Source: Acetobacter pasteurianus subsp. pasteurianus LMG 1262 = NBRC 106471 (GTDB lineage Bacteria > Pseudomonadota > Alphaproteobacteria > Acetobacterales > Acetobacteraceae). Taken from it: 64,000 nt of DNA. Shown one piece after another: positions 20,876 through 30,313 of this stretch. The notes beneath the pieces are model-generated. The model searched no databases. It was not told the DNA's origin and worked only from the letters and a program-made list of their open reading frames with translations. The stretch is taken from assembly GCF_000285275.1 (NCBI RefSeq), contig NZ_CADO01000139.1:248001-312000 (forward strand), given 5' to 3'. A program made the position numbers and the translations under genes. The stretch's first letter is position 1, and each line of letters begins with the position of its first letter.

Positions 20876-23800
20876 TTAGAATGTTCCACTAAAGTATGAC
20901 TGAAGTGGCGCAACATCAAGCGGTCCTTCACGCATTGCCGCAATTGCATGAATTGCAGCCCGCGCGCCGGCCATCGTGGTGTAGTGCGGAATACCCAGCA
21001 CAAGGGCAGAGCGGCGGATATCAAAACTGTCTGCCACAGACTGCGCACCCTGTGCCGTGTTGATAACCATCTGCACCTCACCAGAGCGAATGGCATCCAC
21101 ACAATGTGGGCGGCCTTCCAGCACCTTGTTCACAAGGTTCACCTCAATACCGGAATCGCGCAGCTTTTTGGCTGTGCCGCGGGTGGCCATAATACGGAAA
21201 CCCATGGAAGCCAGCAGGCGGCCCAGCGGTGGCAGTTGGGGCTTGTCACTTTCACGCACGGAAAGGAACACCGTGCCGGAGGTTGGCAGCTTAACGCCAG
21301 CCCCAAGCTGGGATTTGGCAAAGGCGCGCTCGAAGGATGTATCCAGCCCCATGACTTCACCCGTGGAGCGCATTTCTGGCCCCAGAATGGTGTCCACTTC
21401 CGCAAAGCGGTTGAAGGGGAATACGGCTTCCTTCACCGCAACATGCGGCACCACGGCTCGGTCATCCAGATTGAAGCCGGAAAGTTTGGCGCCTGCCATA
21501 ACGCGCGCACCAATCTTGGCCACCGGCACACCCGTTGCCTTGGCCACAAATGGCACGGTGCGGGATGCGCGTGGGTTTACCTCAAGAACAAAGATTTCCT
21601 GATCCTTGATGGCGTACTGCACGTTCATCAGGCCCACAATGCCCAGTTCCCGCGCCATGGCTTCTGTCTGGGCTTTCAGCTCAGTTACAATCGCGGGGGA
21701 GAGGGTATAGGGCGGCAGGGCGCAAGCACTATCGCCAGAGTGGATGCCTGCTTCTTCAATGTGTTCCATCACGCCAGCCACATACACATCCGTGCCGTCT
21801 GCAATGCAGTCCACATCAGCTTCAATGGCTTCGTTCAGGTAACGATCAAGCAGGATCGGGCCGGAGGAAATATCGTGCCCGGCCATTGTCAGCACATCGC
21901 GCATGTAGCGCTGCAGGCCGTTACGGTCGTACACAATTTCCATGGCGCGGCCACCCAGCACGTAGGAAGGGCGCACCACAACCGGATAGCCAACTTTTTC
22001 GGCCACGGCTTCGGCTTCTTCCGGCGTACGGGCAATGCCGTTTTCTGGCTGGCGCAGGCCCAGCTTGTGCAGCATGGTCTGGAAGCGTTCACGGTCTTCC
22101 GCCCGGTCAATGGCATCTGCCGGGGTGCCCAGCAGCGGAATACCTGCGGCTTCCAGAGCGCGGGAAAGTTTAAGAGGTGTCTGCCCGCCATACTGCACAA
22201 TGCAGCCCTTAACCGTACCTTTCTGCTGTTCGCAGCGGATAAGGGAGATCACGTCTTCAGCCGTCAGTGGTTCAAAATACAGACGGTCGGAGGTGTCATA
22301 GTCGGTAGAAACCGTTTCCGGGTTACAGTTGACCATGATGGTTTCATAACCGGCTTCACGCAGGGCGTAAGCGGCATGAACACAGCAGTAATCGAACTCA
22401 ATACCCTGCCCGATACGGTTGGGGCCACCACCCAGAATAACAATCTTTTCCCGGTCTGTCGGGTTGGATTCACAGGTTGGCGGCGCAAACTGCCCTTCGT
22501 AGGTGGAATACATATACGGGGTGGAGGATGCGAACTCACCCGCACAGGTATCAATGCGCTTGTAAACCGGTGTCACACCAGCTTCCGCCCGCAGTTTGGC
22601 CACTTCTTCAGGCTGCGTGCCAGACAGGCGGGAAAGCTGCACGTCTGAGAAGCCAAGGGCCTTCAGGTGGCGCAGGCTCTGGGCATCCTTCGGCAGGCCG
22701 TGGTTTTCCACTTCCCGTTCTGCGTGAATGATTTTTTCCATTTCACGCAGGAACCAAGGCTCAAACTTGCAGGCTTCGTGGATGTCATCCACGGAAAGGC
22801 CCGCACGCAGCGCCTGTGCCGCCATAAGGATACGTTCTGGCTTGGGCTGGGAAAGAGCCGCGCGGAAGGCATCTTCTCCACCATCACCGGGCTGTTCCAC
22901 TGGGTCCAGCCCGTGCAGGCCGGTTTCCATGGAGCGCAGACCTTTCTGCAAGGCTTCAGGGAAGGAGCGGCCAATGGCCATGGCTTCCCCAACCGATTTC
23001 ATGGAGGTGGAGAGCAGAGCCGGTGCGCCGGGGAACTTTTCAAACGTAAAGCGCGGGATCTTCACCACCACATAGTCAATGGTGGGTTCGAAGGAGGCCG
23101 GGGTGGTGCGCGTGATGTCGTTTTTTAGCTCATCCAGCGTGTAGCCAACGGCCAGCTTGGCCGCCACTTTGGCAATGGGGAAGCCCGTTGCCTTGGATGC
23201 CAGCGCAGAGGAGCGAGACACACGGGGGTTCATTTCAATCACCACCATGCGGCCGTCTTTGGGGTTGATCCCAAACTGCACGTTGGAACCACCCGTTTCC
23301 ACGCCAATGGCCCGCAGGCAGGCAATGGAGGCATCACGCATGCGCTGATATTCTTTGTCAGTCAGCGTGAGTGCCGGGGCAACTGTGATGGAATCACCCG
23401 TATGCACACCCATTGGGTCAATGTTTTCAATAGAGCAGATGATAATGCAGTTGTCCGCCTTATCGCGCACAACTTCCATTTCATACTCTTTCCAGCCCAG
23501 CACGGATTCTTCCACCAGTACTTCCGTGGTGGGGGAGGCATCCAGCCCGGAAAGCACGATCTGGTCGAACTCTTCACGGTTATAGGCAATGCCACCGCCG
23601 GAACCACCCATGGTGAAGGATGGGCGGATAATGGACGGAAAGCCAATCTGCTTGAGCGCATCGTGCGCTTCTGCCAGCGTGTGGGCAATAAAGCTGCGCG
23701 GGCTTTCAATGCCAATGGCATCCATGGTTTCGCGGAACTTCTGACGGTCTTCCGCCCGGTCAATCACCTCGGCGTCTGCGCCAATCAGTTCCACGTTGTG

Positions 23801-24130
23801 CTTGGTTAAAAAGCCCGAAGCATGCAGCGCCATAGCGGTGTTCAGCGCTGTCTGGCCACCCATGGTGGGCAGCACGGCATCTGGCTTTTCCTTAAGGATA
23901 ATGCGTTCCACCACTTCCGGCGTAATGGGTTCCACATAGGTGGCGTCCGCAAGGCCGGGGTCTGTCATAATGGTGGCTGGGTTGGAGTTTACCAGAATAA
24001 CCCGGTAGCCTTCTTCCCGCAGGGCCTTACAGGCCTGTGCGCCAGAGTAATCGAACTCGCACGCCTGCCCGATAACAATAGGGCCAGCGCCGATGATGAG
24101 GATGGAGCGGATGTCTGTCCGTTTGGGCAT
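20876..24130 (-). CDS. carB: Carbamoyl-phosphate synthase large subunit
   Basis: Makes carbamoyl phosphate from bicarbonate, ammonia and two ATP for pyrimidine and arginine synthesis; ammonia comes from CarA. The protein has 1084 residues, full family length. It begins [21 protein letters not shown] and holds two homologous ATP-grasp halves ([15 protein letters not shown] in the first, [16 protein letters not shown] in the second) with the oligomerisation region between. The last 140 residues form an allosteric MGS-like domain. The ATG at 24130 follows carA by 16 bases, so the two are one operon. It ends in a structured spacer before greA. Confidence 0.98.
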
Positions 24131-24146
24131 GATACGTTCGTTCCCG

Positions 24147-25547
24147 TTATTTCTTGGCGCTGTTAAGGTCGATCAGGGTGACAAAGCGTTTGAACAGATA
24201 GAAGCTGTCAGACGGGCCGGGGCTGGCTTCGGGGTGATACTGCACGGAAAACGCCGGATACTTGTCTGATGCCAGGCCTTCGTTTGATCCATCAAACAGG
24301 CTGACATGCGTGACGTGAGCATCGGCTGGCAGGGTGTCGGCATCCACGGCAAAACCGTGGTTCTGGCTGGTAATTTCCACCCGTTTGGTGGCCAGATCCT
24401 GCACCGGCTGGTTGGCCCCGCGGTGGCCGCGTTCCATCTTGTAGGTTTTTGCACCCAGTGCACGGGCCAGAAGCTGATGGCCCAGGCAGATGCCAAACAG
24501 TGGCACACCGGCATCCAGCACAGCTTTAATGGCAGGTACGGCATATGTAGCTGTTGCTGCCGGATCACCCGGGCCGTTGGAAAGGAACACACCTTCCGGC
24601 TTAAGGGCCAGAATTTCTTCACCCGTGGTGGTGGCGGGCACAACGGTTACATCACATCCAGCAGCCACAAGGCAGCGCAGGATGTTACGTTTTGCACCGT
24701 AATCCACAGCCACAACCTTGCGGCGGTTTGTGGGGGCTTCCTTGCTGCCTGTGGGCCATTCCCACACGCTTTCTGTCCATGCATATGGGGTAGAGCAGGT
24801 AACTTCCTTGGCAAGATCCATGCCTTCAAGGCCGGGCCATGCTTTGGCTTCTGCCAAAACAGCGTCCAGATCAAACTTGCCATCCTGCGGGAAAACCAGC
24901 GCGGCTGTTTGCGCACCCTTGTCCCGGATTTTCAGGGTGAGGGAACGGGTATCCACACCAGCAATGCCGGAAACACCGCGTTCCTTCAGCCACGCATCAA
25001 GGCTTTCTGTTGCGCGCCAGTTGGCCGGTGCTGTGGGGTCTTCCTTCACTACAAGGCCGCGGGCAAACACTTTTGCGGCTTCATCATCTTCAGCATTCGC
25101 GCCCACATTGCCGATATGGGGGAAGGTGAAGGTAATGATCTGCCCGGCAAAAGATGGATCAGTCAGTGTTTCCTGATACCCGGTCATGCCGGTTGAAAAG
25201 CAGATTTCGCCAATGGAGGGTTTGGAGGTAAAAGCGCCAAAGCCTTTCCCCCACAATACGGTTCCATCTGCGAGAACAAGCGCGGCGGTGGCGCCATCGG
25301 GGCGGGCGTCGGGCATGGATGATCCTGTCTTGCTGTCTCCCGCATGGGGGGAGGGTCGGTCTGTCGGAATGGGCTGGAGGTCTTCCAGGGAAAGGCCTGT
25401 GGCCTGCGCAATAACTGGCCAATGGCGGGGCGGAATAGCCTGCGCCTGCCGCCATTTGCGGATGGCTTCTGTGCCAACGCCTGTCAGCTTGGCTGTGGCG
25501 TCTGGGCCGCCAATCCGGGCGATAATGGTATCTATGGACAAGGGCAT
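24147..25547 (-). CDS. carA: Carbamoyl-phosphate synthase small subunit with N-terminal helix-turn-helix extension
   Basis: Hydrolyses glutamine and passes ammonia to CarB. The continuous frame is 466 residues. Residues 78-466 are a normal CarA: the N-terminal domain begins [16 protein letters not shown], and the class I amidotransferase triad is Cys354 in FGICLGHQ, His438 and Glu440 in QYHPEA. Residues 1-60 are extra and resemble a small Cro/CI-like helix-turn-helix ([18 protein letters not shown], then AIRKWRQ, then [16 protein letters not shown]), joined by a Pro-rich linker. I recall similar N-terminal domains reported on alphaproteobacterial CarA proteins (the carph-isopro domain). A second start, ATG at 25316 with AGGA seven bases upstream, would give the canonical 389-residue protein, so two products are possible. 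Two tandem palindromes lie 50-112 bases upstream. Confidence 0.93.
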
Positions 25548-25596
25548 GTGCGTGCTTGTGCCTCCCGAAGCCGTCTTCTAGCACTCGATTTCCTAG

Positions 25597-25615
25597 GTGG
25601 GAAGAAATTTCCCAC
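25597..25615. promoter_or_regulatory. Palindrome GTGGGAA-N5-TTCCCAC upstream of carA (proximal copy)
   Basis: Seven-base perfect arms around GAAAT, 50-68 bases upstream of the carA ATG. A second copy with the same spacing occurs 44 bases away, about four helical turns, so both would lie on the same DNA face. No known operator was matched with certainty; a CarA HTH or a separate regulator could bind it. Confidence 0.6.
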
Positions 25616-25640
25616 GCGCAAGATGCAGTGGTGTAAGTGG

Positions 25641-25659
25641 GTGGGAAGTTTTTTCCCGC
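25641..25659. promoter_or_regulatory. Palindrome GTGGGAA-N5-TTCCCGC upstream of carA (distal copy)
   Basis: This copy repeats the 25597 site with one changed base in the right arm (T opposite G) and the same five-base spacer length. It lies 94-112 bases before carA and 118-136 bases before yqeY, so it could serve either gene of the divergent pair. Confidence 0.55.
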
Positions 25660-25776
25660 AGTGTTGCATACGTGCCGCGCAGGGCGGAGTGGCACTTTAA
25701 TTTCCAGCCTGAATGTTCTTTTTACGAAACCCAGTGATATGGTGCGCCCGATTGCAGCACAGAAAGAGCGGAGCAT

Positions 25777-26238
25777 ATGGAAATGACATTACGTGAACGC
25801 CTGATGGCAGACCTGAAAACAGCCATGAAAGCAGGCGAAAGCGCCCGTGTGGCCACAATCCGGATGATTACGGCCAAGCTGAAGGATGTGGAAATTGCAG
25901 GCCGTGCCAAAGGGCAGGAAGGTCTGAATGAAAACGAAGCCATTGCCGCATTGCGCGGAATGGTAAAGTCTCGCACGGAATCTGCTGGCATGTGCCGTGA
26001 TGGCGGTCGCCCCGAACTGGCGGAAAAGGAAGAGGCGGAAATTGACGTTATCCGTGGCTATCTGCCGCCAGAAATGGATGAAGCTTCCCTGAAGGCCGCG
26101 GTGGATGAAGCCGTTGCTACCGTAAAAGCCGAAAGCCTGAAGGATATGGGCAAGGTGATGGCGGAACTTAAAAACAAGTTCGGCGTAGCGCTGGATATGG
26201 GCAAAGCCAGTGCTGCTGTCAAAGCGCGTCTGGGCTAA
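25777..26238 (+). CDS. GatB/YqeY domain-containing protein
   Basis: Protein of 153 residues made entirely of a GatB/YqeY domain: RERLMADLKTAMKAGE at the N-terminus, RVATIRMITAKLKDVEI, then EIDVIRGYLPPEMDE and KDMGKVMAELKNKF. The domain resembles the tRNA-binding tail of the GatB amidotransferase subunit, but free-standing YqeY proteins have no settled function. It opens the yqeY-dnaG-rpoD operon, taking the place that rpsU has in E. coli. Two starts are possible: ATG at 25777 (used here) or at 25783, which is better spaced from the GGAG at 25770-25773. The gene diverges from carA across 229 bases with two palindromes. Confidence 0.9.
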   Translation: MEMTLRERLMADLKTAMKAGESARVATIRMITAKLKDVEIAGRAKGQEGLNENEAIAALRGMVKSRTESAGMCRDGGRPELAEKEEAEIDVIRGYLPPEMDEASLKAAVDEAVATVKAESLKDMGKVMAELKNKFGVALDMGKASAAVKARLG

Positions 26239-26273
26239 GCGTTTTTTAACGTCATATTGCAGAAATTAAGTAT

Positions 26274-26314
26274 CGGCCCGATCTGGGGTGGCTTTGTGCT
26301 GCTTGGTCGGGCCG
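26274..26314 (+). other. Inverted repeat in the yqeY-dnaG spacer
   Basis: CGGCCCGA (26274-26281) and TCGGGCCG (26307-26314) can pair across 25 bases, ending about 20 bases before the dnaG start. No T-run follows. It may be an mRNA processing or stability element within the operon. Confidence 0.45.
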
Positions 26315-26334
26315 CTTGATGAAACGGACAGTCA

Positions 26335-28176
26335 ATGGCGATTGATTCAGCTTTTCTGGATGAATTGCGGGCCCGCACGCCCATTGCGTCCGTTGTGGGG
26401 CGCAGGGTCAAGCTGGCCCGCTCCGGGCGGAACTGGAAAGGGTGCTGCCCCTTCCACGGTGAAAAAACACCTTCCTTTTATGTTTATGATGATCACTTCC
26501 ACTGCTTTGGCTGCGGTGTGCATGGAGATGTCATCTCCTTTGTCATGCAGATGGAGGGCAAGAACTTCCCCGAGGCTGTAGAGGAATTAGCCTCCAGCGC
26601 GGGCATGGAAGTGCCAAAGGATACGCGCCGTACGCAGGAAGAAGTGGCGCATGTGCGCTCGCTGGAAGACGTGTTGGCTGCTACGCAGGAAATCTGGTCT
26701 CACGCTTTATACAAACCGGAGGGCCGCGCCGGGTTGGATTACCTGCTGGGGCGTGGCCTCACGCGGGAAACGCTGGAAACCTTCGGCTTGGGTTGGGCGA
26801 GTGAGAGACGGGGAGAACTGGTTTCTGCTCTCGCACCCAAAGGCATTACGCCCGAGATGATGGCCGAAGCCGGCCTGATGCGGGTGGATGAGCACGGGCA
26901 CCCCAAGGGTGAGTTGTTCTGGGGGCGCGTTACTTTTCCCATTCGGGATCGCAAAGGGCGGCTGGTTTCCTTTGGTGGGCGTATTCTGGGTGATGGGCAG
27001 CCCAAATACCTCAATGGGCCGGAAACCCCTGTTTTTTCCAAGCGGCGGTTGTTGTTCGGGTTGGACCGTGCCCGTGCGGCTGTGCGTGCGCCACGCCCCA
27101 AAGGTATGTTGGCGCCGGATCTGGTGGTGGTGGAAGGGTATATGGATGTTATTGCCCTGCATCAGGCCGGTTTTACGGGGGCCGTGGCCCCGCTGGGTAC
27201 GGCGCTCACGCCTGAGCAGCTAGAGGCGCTCTGGCAGGTCGATCGGGCACCCATCCTGTGTTTTGATGGGGATGCAGCCGGACGCAGGGCGGCAGTTAAG
27301 GCGGCAGAAACGGGCTTGCCACTGCTCAAGCAGGATTACTTCCTGCGCATTTGCCTGCTGCCAGATGGGGAAGATCCAGACAGTCTGGTGCGCACGCGCG
27401 GGCGGCAGGCTGTTGCAGAGATGTTTGCCGCAGCGCAGCCTTTATCCGAAGTGCTGTTTGATCTGCTGAGCGCTGGCATTAACAATCCGGGGCCAGAAGA
27501 ACGCGCAGCCCTGCGGCGCAGGCTGACGGAAGTTGCCGCCCTTATTCCAGATAAAATGCTGGCGTCTGAATATCGCTCCACATTGCTGGATCGGTTTTTT
27601 ACAACTTTCCGGCGTGGCGGTGGCGGTAAATGGAATGGGCCGCAGGGGCGCAAAAGCAATGCACCTGCCTCGGTGCCCGGTGCTGTGCCTGTCAATATGG
27701 ACCAAACACGGGAGCGCCAGCGCCTGATGCTGGAGTTGCTGCTGTTTCATCCTGTGTTGGTGCCGGAGGTGGAGGAAGCTCTGTGCCGGCTGGATTTACC
27801 CGAAGAATTTGCCGAGGTGCGCGCTCTTTTGCTGGACCTTTCTGCCGAGGGTGAGTTGCCAGACAATGCTGCGGCACTATATGCATGGTTACAGGCGGAA
27901 GGGGCGGAGGAAACCATTCGCGCTGTCATGCGTGAAAGCTACTCTGCGATGTCGGAAAGTGATGCAGAAGACCCTGCGCACACTGTTGCGGCAAGAACAC
28001 AGTGGTGGCATTTTTATGGTTTGCTCTACGGGCCGCAATTTATTCAGGAAGTAAATCGTGAGATTGCGCGTTTTGTTGAAAAAGGCGGAGATTCCGCTGA
28101 ATGGCAACGGTTACAGGCGCGGCTAGAGGCAATGGAACGCCTGAAACGCGGCGGTGTGGACGACACCGAGCTATAA
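26335..28176 (+). CDS. dnaG: DNA primase
   Basis: Makes RNA primers at the replication fork together with DnaB. The protein has 613 residues. The N-terminal zinc finger is visible as CPFHGEKTPSF (Cys38, His41) and CFGCG (Cys57, Cys60). The TOPRIM core follows, with VVVEGYMDVIALHQAG (catalytic Glu) and CFDGDAAGRRAA (DxD). The C-terminal part is the helicase-binding domain, whose sequence is less conserved, after a basic Gly-rich linker near residues 430-450. The ATG at 26335 matches the family start. It sits between yqeY and rpoD in one operon. Confidence 0.96.
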   Translation: MAIDSAFLDELRARTPIASVVGRRVKLARSGRNWKGCCPFHGEKTPSFYVYDDHFHCFGCGVHGDVISFVMQMEGKNFPEAVEELASSAGMEVPKDTRRTQEEVAHVRSLEDVLAATQEIWSHALYKPEGRAGLDYLLGRGLTRETLETFGLGWASERRGELVSALAPKGITPEMMAEAGLMRVDEHGHPKGELFWGRVTFPIRDRKGRLVSFGGRILGDGQPKYLNGPETPVFSKRRLLFGLDRARAAVRAPRPKGMLAPDLVVVEGYMDVIALHQAGFTGAVAPLGTALTPEQLEALWQVDRAPILCFDGDAAGRRAAVKAAETGLPLLKQDYFLRICLLPDGEDPDSLVRTRGRQAVAEMFAAAQPLSEVLFDLLSAGINNPGPEERAALRRRLTEVAALIPDKMLASEYRSTLLDRFFTTFRRGGGGKWNGPQGRKSNAPASVPGAVPVNMDQTRERQRLMLELLLFHPVLVPEVEEALCRLDLPEEFAEVRALLLDLSAEGELPDNAAALYAWLQAEGAEETIRAVMRESYSAMSESDAEDPAHTVAARTQWWHFYGLLYGPQFIQEVNREIARFVEKGGDSAEWQRLQARLEAMERLKRGGVDDTEL

Positions 28177-28189
28177 GACAACAAATGTG

Positions 28190-28249
28190 TTCAGGGCGTG
28201 TTCCCCTTGACTTCACGCGCAGGATATCCCACGTCCTGCCCGCCCTGAA
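28190..28249 (+). other. Nested inverted repeats in the dnaG-rpoD spacer
   Basis: TTCAGGGCG (28190-28198) pairs with CGCCCTGAA (28241-28249), and inside it CAGGA pairs with TCCTG across nine bases. There is no T-run, so it is unlikely to be a simple terminator. In E. coli the dnaG-rpoD junction is an RNA processing point, and this structure could serve a similar purpose here. Confidence 0.45.
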
Positions 28250-28321
28250 AAGAGAGCAGTACATAGTAAACTGGTCGTTCTGCATTCTGTTCGGATGCGG
28301 GCGGGGAGGAGCAGGTCTGGC

Positions 28322-30313
28322 ATGGCGACAAAAACGGCATCAACCAACGCAGCGCAGGAACAGGATGGTGATACCACCCTGCTTGATACGCGGTCTTCTG
28401 CAGTCAAAAAACTGATTGCCAAAGGGCGTGAGCGCGGGTGCATCACGTTTGATGAGCTAAATGCCGTTCTCCCGCAGGACAAAATGTCTTCTGAGCAGAT
28501 TGAAGACATTATGGCCGTGCTGTCTGAAATGGGTATTCAGGTTGTCGAGAACGAAGATAACGACAACGAGGAAACTGAACCCAAGAAAGCCGCTGCTGAA
28601 AGCGATGACGCAGAGGAAGAAGCCGAGGCTGAAACCGAAGCGGAAGCCGAAAGCCCAACCGGTAATGTAAATGCCGAAAGCGTAGGCCGTACGGATGACC
28701 CCGTGCGTATGTATCTGCGTGAAATGGGCACGGTGGAACTGCTCTCTCGTGAGGGCGAAATTGCCATTGCCAAGCGGATTGAGGCTGGCCGTGATGAAAT
28801 GATTGGCGGCTTGTGTGAAAGCCCGCTGACATTCCGCGCCATCATCTCTTGGCATGAGATGATCCGTAACAATGAAATGCTGCTGCGTGACATTGTGGAT
28901 CTGGAAGCCATGCAAAGTGGTGGCAACCCGCTGGAAGAGGGCGGAGACGGCACGTTTAACGAAGCCGAATCCGATTCTGAAGCGGAAGAAGCCGAAGAGC
29001 CAGAAGCCGAGGGCGAAGGCGATATTGAGAGCGAAGGCAGTGGCCTTTCCCTTTCTGCGCTGGAAGAAAAGCTCAAGCCGGAAATTCTTGCGCATTTTGA
29101 TGAGATCGAACCGCTTTATGCCGAACTGCGCAAGTTGCAGGTGCAGCGGATTGAAGCCCTGACATCTGGTGAAGATGTTGATGGCAATTTTGAAGAAAGT
29201 TACGTTGCCCTGCGTGAAAAGCTGGTGGGCAAGGTAGAGCAGGTTCACCTGCACAATAACCGGATTGAAGATCTGGTGGCCCAGCTCAAGCAGATGTTCC
29301 AGAAGCTGAACATGCTGGAAGGGCGTATGCTGCGTCTGGCAGAAAGCTGCCGTGTCTCACGTGAAGATTTCTTGCTGAAATACCGTGGCCGTGAGCTTGA
29401 TCCGGGCTGGATGGACATGGTTTCCGGCCTGTCTGGTCGTTCATGGAAGAACTTTGTGGCCAAGCACGCCAATACGGTGGTTGGTCTGCGTGATCAGGTT
29501 GCACAGTTGGCGCAGGAAACGGGTTTGCCAATTGGTGAATTCCGCCGTGTGTATGCAACGGTTGCGCGTGGTGAGCGTGATTCTGCGCGTGCTAAAAAGG
29601 AAATGATTGAAGCCAACCTGCGCTTGGTTATTTCCATTGCCAAAAAATACACCAACCGCGGCCTTCAATTCCTTGATCTGATTCAGGAAGGCAATATCGG
29701 CCTGATGAAGGCGGTGGATAAGTTTGAATACCGCCGTGGTTACAAGTTCTCCACCTATGCAACGTGGTGGATCAGGCAGGCGATTACGCGCTCCATTGCG
29801 GATCAGGCCCGTACAATCCGTATTCCGGTGCATATGATCGAAACGATCAATAAGCTGGTGCGCACCTCTCGCCAGATGCTGCATGAAATCGGGCGTGAAC
29901 CTGCACCGGAAGAGCTGGCTGAAAAGCTGGGTATGCCGCTGGAAAAAGTGCGCAAGGTGCTGAAAATTGCCAAGGAGCCCATCTCCCTCGAAACCCCGAT
30001 CGGGGATGAGGAAGATAGCCATCTGGGTGATTTCATCGAGGATAAAACAGCTATTATCCCGCTGGATGCCGCTATCCAGACCAATCTGCGTGAAGCCACA
30101 ACCCGCGTTCTGGCCTCTCTTACTCCGCGTGAAGAACGCGTGCTGCGTATGCGTTTTGGTATTGGCATGAACACCGATCATACGCTGGAAGAAGTTGGCC
30201 AGCAGTTTAACGTAACGCGTGAACGTATCCGCCAGATTGAAGCCAAGGCTCTGCGTAAGCTCAAACATCCAAGCCGTAGCCGTAAGCTGCGTTCCTTCCT
30301 GGATGATAACTGA
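28322..30313 (+). CDS. rpoD: RNA polymerase primary sigma factor RpoD
   Basis: Housekeeping sigma factor, 663 residues. Region 1.1 lies at the N-terminus, followed by an acidic stretch (about residues 78-115). Region 1.2 appears as [23 protein letters not shown] non-conserved region with a second Glu-rich block separates it from region 2 ([33 protein letters not shown], the core-binding part, then the -10 recognition helix containing [10 protein letters not shown]). Region 3 and region 4 ([23 protein letters not shown], the -35 helix-turn-helix) complete it. I chose ATG at 28322, with GGAGGAG about ten bases before it, over ATG at 28295. A hairpin follows the stop. Confidence 0.97.

What the first reader, a model, noticed from the sequence alone, without database searches (positions are those of the whole stretch)
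24147..25547. DNA-binding-like domain fused to the N-terminus of CarA
The carA frame is open without a stop through 77 extra codons that look like a compact helix-turn-helix ([11 protein letters not shown], then AIRKWRQ, then [13 protein letters not shown]), then continues as a normal CarA. An enzyme subunit carrying a DNA-binding-like head could regulate its own operon or sense metabolite state. A second in-frame ATG at 25316 with a good ribosome-binding site could also give plain CarA, so two forms are possible. I recall that similar domains have been named for alphaproteobacterial carbamoyl phosphate synthase (carph-isopro), but their function is not, to my knowledge, established.
Basis: partly seen in the sequence, partly recalled or inferred. 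Interest (0 to 1): 0.7.

Follow-up and report, generated by a model that had tools for sequence, protein, structure and literature searches.

The report
Biosynthetic enzyme subunit that self-regulates
In acetic acid bacteria and their relatives the small subunit of carbamoyl phosphate synthase carries a phage-repressor-like DNA-binding head that, by sequence evidence from many genomes, probably binds two mirror-image sites in its own promoter, so that the enzyme controls its own production.

Summary
Confirmed: one open frame (24147-25547, minus strand, 466 aa) joins a Cro-like HTH (NCBIfam NF046037, carph-isopro) to a complete CarA. It is no chance read-through: the fusion occurs through the whole family, and in Acetobacter the head is under stronger purifying selection than the enzyme. 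The finding did not describe the key part: two palindromes (core GGAA-N5-TTCC) upstream of the gene. At least one lies upstream of all 176 complete fusions read (170 without mismatch); 160 have a pair 33-55 bp apart. None of 28 unfused carA genes from other families has one, and three unfused carA genes within the family have none without a mismatch. In 116 loci the near site exactly fills the space between -35-like and -10-like boxes. After correction for relatedness, site bases vary with recognition-helix residues 25, 26, 34 and 36, far more than with the enzyme core. Best reading: CarA is a single-target autorepressor of carAB (inferred; no experiment). An internal ATG with ribosome-binding site recurs in 47 of 92 genera, so two products are plausible. 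HTH-HisZ fusions elsewhere show the same two-site layout with a different site sequence, suggesting a portable enzyme-borne autoregulator.

The parts
24147..25547 (-). carA fused at its N-terminus to a carph-isopro HTH; 466 aa
25374..25535 (-). HTH (carph-isopro, NF046037), residues 5-58; predicted helices 5-12, 15-22, 26-35 (recognition helix), 40-50, 54-57
25287..25373 (-). low-confidence, fast-evolving linker, about residues 59-87
   Evidence: pLDDT below 50 for 63-66 and 68-77; pN/pS 0.637 for residues 59-84
25314..25316 (-). in-frame internal ATG (Met78) that could start plain CarA (389 aa)
25323..25326 (-). AGGA, Shine-Dalgarno-like, 6 nt before ATG 25316
24147..25286 (-). CarA enzyme part; presumed amidotransferase Cys354, His438 and Glu440 are invariant in the 30-row alignment (roles recalled from E. 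coli CarA)
25598..25614 (.). near operator-like palindrome TGGGAAATTTCTTCCCA, centre 25606
25642..25658 (.). far operator-like palindrome CGGGAAAAAACTTCCCA, centre 25650, 44 bp from the near one
25598..25603 (-). TTCCCA, candidate -35 box inside the near palindrome
   Evidence: position taken from the alignment of 60 long-leader loci; no sigma-70 match in the scan of the region
25575..25580 (-). TAGAAG, candidate -10 box, 17 bp after the TTCCCA
   Evidence: weak match to TATAAT, not found
25561..25566 (-). GGGAGG, Shine-Dalgarno-like, 13 nt before ATG 25547
20876..24130 (-). carB, directly downstream of carA
   Evidence: ORF of 1084 aa; identity recalled from its sequence, not searched

Best explanation
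CarA here is an enzyme subunit that is also the transcription factor of its own operon. The N-terminal Cro-like HTH, joined to CarA by a flexible linker, binds as pairs to two palindromes (core GGAA-N5-TTCC) in the carA promoter. The near palindrome covers promoter elements (the whole -35/-10 spacer in most genera, the -35 box in the Acetobacter-like layout), so binding should shut out RNA polymerase: negative autoregulation of carAB by the amount, and perhaps the assembly state, of the enzyme. The far palindrome, most often 37-40 bp away, gives cooperative binding, for which an enzyme holding several CarA subunits is well suited. In about half of the genera an internal start would also give head-less CarA, so that enzyme and repressor doses could be set apart. 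Shown by sequence: the fusion, the sites, their place in the promoter, their absence where the head is absent, the co-variation of recognition-helix residues with site bases. Inferred: binding itself, repression rather than activation, cooperativity, any effector, use of the internal start.
For: Sites: of 176 complete fusions, 176 have at least one GGAA-N5-TTCC with at most 1 mismatch within 300 nt before the head, 170 at least one without mismatch, 162 at least two; 160 have a pair 33-55 bp apart, 129 of these 37-40 bp. Shuffled upstream regions of the first 152 loci hold 0.088 sites on average. Controls: 0 of 28 unfused carA genes of other alphaproteobacterial families have such a site in 450 nt before the core (a differently anchored first count gave 1 of 28 with one mismatch). 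Three genomes of the same family with a head-less carA (L209 of the window's own genus, L212, L376) have no site without mismatch. Co-variation (phylogenetic regression on a CarA-core tree, 176 loci): base +-7 of the site goes with residue 34 (p 8e-10), 25 (7e-7), 36 (1.7e-4), and base +-8 with residue 26 (5e-6); p<1e-5 in 4 of 186 head tests and 0 of 863 core tests for base +-7. The 13 loci in 4 genera with Ser or Ala at 34 have a non-G at +-7 in 98% of half-sites, the 158 with Gln in 10%. The two sites of one promoter change together (p 6e-8). Promoter: in 116 loci TTG stands at -14 to -12 from the near centre (99, 93, 96%), A at +10 (92%), T at +9 (60%), ATG most often at +21 or +22. Single target: in the window's genome the only matches to GTGGGAA-N5-TTCCCAC with 0 or 1 mismatch are these two; in 20 genomes exact YGGGAA-N5-TTCCCR occurs 44 times, 25 of them before carA in 17 genomes, 2 not assigned (G216), 17 elsewhere, against 19 for the reversed control pattern. 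Fold: Cro proteins are the best PDB matches by structure and by profile. Parallel: 15 of 15 HTH-fused loci of family f49, taken to be HisZ, have a pair of TTCATA-N3-TATGAA palindromes exactly 39 bp apart.
Against: No experiment. The same bases could be read by another regulator that co-evolves with the head by indirect routes. Independent changes at residue 34 are few: 5-6 pairs, of which 3-4 go the expected way and 0 (rarely 1) the other; sign test not significant. Counter-rows: Thr34 (L023, L027, L088) and His34 (L093) keep mostly or half G; four Gln34 loci (L044, L049, L166, L200) have mostly non-G; L190 (Ser34, dropped because its carA is cut) has 3 of 4 G. Residue 10, outside the recognition helix, also associates (6e-5), and one core test passes 1e-4. 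16 of 176 loci have no pair at this stringency. Spacing is not strictly phased (37-40, 43-44, 48-50). The head-less L209 still has two one-mismatch sites, one of them 122 nt before the core. No sigma-70 promoter is found in the window's region by the consensus scan. The mitofilin-type carriers of the same domain family seem to lie inside operons without an own promoter, so the domain does not always do this.
Confidence: 0.82

Rival explanations
1. The head binds the palindromes but activates carAB, or acts on the divergent gene (25777-26238, yqeY-like) rather than on carA.
For: The intergenic region is shared with a divergent gene. Direction of regulation cannot be read from sequence.
Against: The near site lies in the core promoter of carA at a fixed distance from its -35 and -10 boxes, a classic place for repression; distances to the divergent gene were not measured.
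Confidence: 0.1
2. Another, unidentified transcription factor binds the palindromes and the CarA head has a different job.
For: Nothing here shows binding; operators of an outside pyrimidine or arginine regulator would also sit before carA.
Against: Site bases follow recognition-helix residues of the head; sites are missing before head-less carA, including one in the window's genus; the site is confined to carA promoters, whereas a pathway regulator would be expected at other genes too.
Confidence: 0.06
3. The extension is not made: translation starts at 25316 and the upstream codons are an open leader.
For: The internal start has a better placed Shine-Dalgarno (6 nt) than the first (13 nt); in the 116 short-leader loci only 7 of 115 first starts have a Shine-Dalgarno core.
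Against: pN/pS of the head is 0.142; the head is kept through 92 genera read; 28 of 176 loci have no ATG, GTG or TTG in the linker; short-leader genes look leaderless, which needs no Shine-Dalgarno.
Confidence: 0.02

Closest known systems
NCBIfam NF046037, carph-isopro domain
   Same: The head is a full-length match well over the cut-off.
   Different: The family is a name without a function in what I could read: 0 papers for 'carph-isopro' and for 'NF046037'. Here it gets a proposed DNA site, target and role. Two subtypes are seen: RKW type on CarA, VQGW type mostly on mitofilin-like and other proteins.
Phage Cro repressors (N15 Cro 2hin/6on0, Xfaso 1 Cro 3bd1, P22 Cro 1rzs)
   Same: Same fold by Foldseek (TM-score up to 0.64, rmsd 1.2, probability 1.00; best E 0.04, none below 0.001) and by profile (3bd1 E 0.001, 2hin E 0.004); palindromic operators near the promoter.
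   Different: Cro is a small free protein; here the domain is the head of a housekeeping enzyme.
Enzymes with their own DNA-binding domain, PutA and BirA (recalled; listing and abstracts only)
   Same: A metabolic enzyme carries a DNA-binding domain and represses genes of its own pathway.
   Different: Other folds, other enzymes; BirA and PutA regulate pathway genes through ligand or redox state, while here the site pattern points to one target, the enzyme's own operon, and no ligand is known.
E. coli carAB regulation by PepA, PyrH, RutR, PurR, IHF, ArgR (PMC6245113: outline, abstract and found passages read)
   Same: Trigger enzymes take part in control of carAB.
   Different: In E. coli the trigger enzymes are other proteins (PepA, PyrH); the passages I saw do not name CPSase itself as a regulator, and E. 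coli had no hit over the family's cut-off (control).

Membership tests
NF046037 carph-isopro | profile score over 38 bits | tested here: met
   64.0 bits whole protein, 69.2 bits head
CarA (TIGR01368) | profile score over 307.35 bits | tested here: met
   462.8 bits
CarA (TIGR01368) | class I amidotransferase Cys-His-Glu triad | tested here: met
   C354, H438, E440 invariant in 30 sequences; that these are the triad is recalled, the spacing is as in E. coli from memory
Pfam YdaS_toxin PF15943 | gathering score 30 | tested here: not met
   22.5 and 25.0 bits
Pfam P22_Cro PF14549 | gathering score 30.2 | tested here: not met
   18.6 and 22.5 bits
Cro-like fold | structural match to solved Cro proteins | tested here: inconclusive
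   top 8 matches are Cro proteins, probability 1.00, but 0 matches with E<=0.001; domain model pLDDT 90.8; profile match to XPH1, a Cro hybrid, E 6e-4
Trigger enzyme / autorepressor | specific DNA site in the own promoter | tested here: met
   (by sequence only)
Trigger enzyme / autorepressor | protein binds that site | tested here: inconclusive
   indirect: co-variation
Trigger enzyme / autorepressor | transcription changes with binding | not testable with these tools
   needs reporter or in vitro transcription

The most novel reading that the evidence does not exclude
Carph-isopro is a portable autorepressor module: different biosynthetic enzymes in different alphaproteobacterial lineages (CarA in Acetobacteraceae, HisZ in at least three other families, perhaps a dehydrogenase E1 subunit) have each taken up the same Cro-like head and each control their own gene through operators in their own promoter, in two of these groups a pair about 39 bp apart, with site sequence following the recognition helix; in many CarA lineages a leaderless start makes the repressor form and an internal start makes the plain enzyme.
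Probability: 0.5. Interest if true: 0.87.

Novelty: new variant of a known kind. Interest (0 to 1): 0.8.

Why it matters
It gives a function, a target and a testable DNA code to a domain that so far has a name only, and it would make a central enzyme of arginine and pyrimidine synthesis the sole dedicated regulator of its own operon in a family of industrial and environmental bacteria. The residue-to-base rule (Gln34 with GGGAA, Ser34 with CGGAA) can be tested directly. If the HisZ parallel holds, it is a general way in which enzymes acquire feedback on their own synthesis.

Tried and rejected
Second targets: the recurrent non-carA match CGGGAA-N5-TTCCCG (L013; also G169 and G060) lies inside a coding frame that looks like a CBS-domain CorC-type protein (identity recalled), so it is not taken as a target. 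Promoter consensus scan: nothing found in 25500-25800. Helical phasing of the two sites: not strict. CarA fusions outside the family: of 84 class genomes with a hit I read 29 further loci (L050-L078) and 8 more (L171-L178); none carries CarA behind the head (L055 was misread by the script and shows the VQGW head); the remaining class hits were not read. Inverted repeats before the other non-CarA carriers read (L171, L172, L178): no perfect 8-bp arms. Effector polarity: E. coli CPSase is tetrameric with ornithine, MgATP and potassium and a heterodimer with UMP (PMC6245113, passages); simple transfer would make UMP relieve repression, which is odd for feedback, so I do not propose an effector.

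Superseded scripts: searches (orientation of loci wrong; linker motif missed 74 of 176 loci; replaced), for the unfused controls (anchor at the open-frame start in part of the rows; replaced).

Searches returned no paper; no listed title in the others describes a DNA-binding CarA. Only open-licence full texts are held. One paper (PMC6245113) was opened: outline, abstract and found passages; the others were seen as search listings with the start of the abstract.

Full report
What is there. The minus-strand frame 24147-25547 is a single 466-aa ORF. Residues 5-58 are a carph-isopro domain (NF046037, 69.2 bits alone, cut-off 38) and residues 88-459 a complete CarA. Pfam's YdaS and P22_Cro models match the head below their cut-offs. 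AlphaFold2 gives five helices in the head (mean pLDDT 90.8; 5-12, 15-22, 26-35, 40-50, 54-57) and, in the full-length model, a low-confidence linker around 63-77 between head and enzyme. The best structural matches are Cro proteins of N15, Xfaso 1 and P22 (probability about 1, TM-score up to 0.64; E-values 0.04 and above); a profile search finds the same proteins (XPH1 6e-4, 3bd1 0.0011, 2hin 0.0042).

Is it real and old? The window is from Acetobacter: its first 63 residues are identical to those of A. pomorum LHT 2458. In 299 genomes of the family, 282 have a hit to the domain, in 99 of 102 genera. I read 183 family loci: 176 complete fusions from 92 genera, 3 cut, 2 with a broken frame, 2 other proteins. 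Of the 17 genomes without a hit, 11 gave no carA either, 4 gave a partial carA lacking the N-terminal part, and 2 (L209 from the window's genus, L212) have a carA without the head; G116, whose only domain hit is another protein, is a third (L376). In 25 Acetobacter ORFs the head has pN/pS 0.142, lower than the enzyme (0.204) and the linker (0.637).

The two palindromes. Before the gene lie TGGGAAATTTCTTCCCA (25598-25614) and CGGGAAAAAACTTCCCA (25642-25658). In the whole genome the pattern GTGGGAA-N5-TTCCCAC matches with 0 or 1 mismatch only there. All 176 fusions have at least one GGAA-N5-TTCC with at most one mismatch in the 300 nt before the head; 170 have one without mismatch, 162 have two or more, 96 have two without mismatch. 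Shuffles of the first 152 regions give 0.088 per region. 160 loci have a pair: 129 with centres 37-40 bp apart, 10 at 43-44, 11 at 48-50, the others between 33 and 55. None of 28 unfused carA genes of other alphaproteobacterial families has a site in 450 nt before the core. Of the three head-less carA genes in the family, L212 and L376 have none and L209 has two one-mismatch sites, perhaps remnants. In 20 near-complete genomes of the family exact YGGGAA-N5-TTCCCR occurs 44 times; by my comparison with the fusion coordinates 25 are before carA (17 genomes), 2 in G216 were not assigned and 17 are elsewhere; the reversed control pattern occurs 19 times. So carA is the only recurrent target seen.

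Promoter layout. Aligned on the near palindrome, the 116 loci with a short leader show TTG at -14 to -12 (99, 93, 96%) and a TA at +9/+10 (60, 92%); the 17-bp palindrome is thus the spacer of a -35/-10 promoter, and the ATG most often stands at +21 or +22, which makes a leaderless messenger likely. In the 60 long-leader loci, the window's among them, TA stands at +26/+27 (73, 75%), so that the palindrome's own TTCCCA is in the -35 position. In the window this would be TTCCCA 25603-25598 and TAGAAG 25580-25575, a weak box that the consensus scan does not report.

Does the head read the sites? A CarA-core tree (head left out; FastTree, 176 rows) was used for phylogenetic regressions of site bases on residues. 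Base +-7 (G or not) goes with residue 34 (8e-10), 25 (7e-7) and 36 (1.7e-4), and with residue 10 (6e-5); base +-8 (T or not) with residue 26 (5e-6). Residues 25, 26, 34 and 36 are in or next to the predicted recognition helix 26-35. For base +-7, 4 of 186 head tests and 0 of 863 core tests pass 1e-5; at 1e-4 it is 5 and 1. With Ser or Ala at 34 (13 loci, 4 genera) 98% of half-sites have a non-G at +-7, with Gln (158 loci) 10%. The far and the near site change together (p 6e-8). Against this: only 5-6 independent pairs exist for residue 34, 3-4 of them concordant, so the pair test is not significant; Thr34 and one His34 lineage keep mostly or half G, four Gln34 loci do not, and the dropped row L190 (Ser34, carA cut) has G in 3 of 4 half-sites.

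Two products. In-frame ATGs are found in the linker of 120 of 176 loci. Met is three times as frequent in the linker as in the core (129 of 4377 against 633 of 66327), and 97 of 129 linker ATGs have a Shine-Dalgarno core against 490 of 4248 other linker codons. This holds in at least one locus of 47 of 92 genera. 28 of 176 loci have no ATG, GTG or TTG in the linker. The counts are not corrected for relatedness.

Mechanism. The most likely reading is negative autoregulation: HTH-CarA binds its own promoter at two sites and blocks it. A flexible linker lets the heads of an oligomer pair up on DNA. E. coli CPSase goes from heterodimer to tetramer with its effectors (PMC6245113, passages), so oligomer state could couple metabolism to binding, but the direction is unknown and E. 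coli's enzyme has no such head. Binding, repression, cooperativity and effectors are inferred.

A wider pattern. Outside the family the same domain family heads other proteins: HisZ-like proteins (L173, L174, L177), a dehydrogenase E1 (L178), a mitofilin-like protein (L171), and in one family genome a TetR-like protein (L233). In family f49, 15 of 18 genomes have a hit, with open frames of 454-466 aa; all 15 loci have a pair of TTCATA-N3-TATGAA palindromes with centres exactly 39 bp apart, 22-25 and 61-64 nt before the head, both without mismatch in 14 of 15; shuffles give 0-0.1 sites. One of these (L329, the place of L174) was identified as HisZ by profile; the others are taken as HisZ from kinship and length. 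L177 (another family) has one perfect site and one with two mismatches, 63 bp apart, and in family f121 a TGTCCTG-N4-CAGGACA palindrome is perfect in one of four genomes and degenerate in two or three. The f49 genomes are related, so this is one case of conservation rather than 15, but it repeats the CarA layout with another enzyme and another site.

Novelty. The domain is named in NCBIfam, and enzyme-borne DNA-binding domains are known in kind (PutA, BirA; recalled, with the listing). A carbamoyl phosphate synthase that regulates itself, its two-site promoter and the residue-to-base rule were not found in the 10 paper searches (listed under Tried and rejected). I therefore rate it a new variant of a known kind.

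Noticed in passing
L174/L329, L325-L328, L330-L339 (family f49): HTH-HisZ-like fusions with paired TTCATA-N3-TATGAA palindromes exactly 39 bp apart before the gene, the CarA layout with another enzyme and another site.
   Followed up: partly
L173, L341-L344 (family f121): HTH-HisZ fusion (L173 by profile) with TGTCCTG-type palindromes before the gene, perfect in one of four genomes.
   Followed up: partly
L178 (G487:C34): Weak carph-isopro head in front of a dehydrogenase E1 component.
   Followed up: no
L050-L078, L171: VQGW-type carph-isopro heads on mitofilin-like proteins (L171 by profile), several near hem genes by eye; they seem to sit inside operons, so the head there may do something else.
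   Followed up: no
L233 (G038:C18): A carph-isopro head in front of a TetR-like regulator in the same family.
   Followed up: no
L209 (G210), L212 (G029), L376 (G116): Three genomes of 1.7-2.1 Mb have lost the CarA head together with the palindromes: natural knock-outs of the proposed circuit.
   Followed up: yes
upstream of 116 fusions, for example L031: carA promoter geometry suggests leaderless messengers in most genera of the family.
   Followed up: partly
window 25777-30313: carAB is divergent from ORFs that look like yqeY, dnaG and rpoD (names recalled from sequence, not searched), sharing the intergenic region with the palindromes.
   Followed up: no
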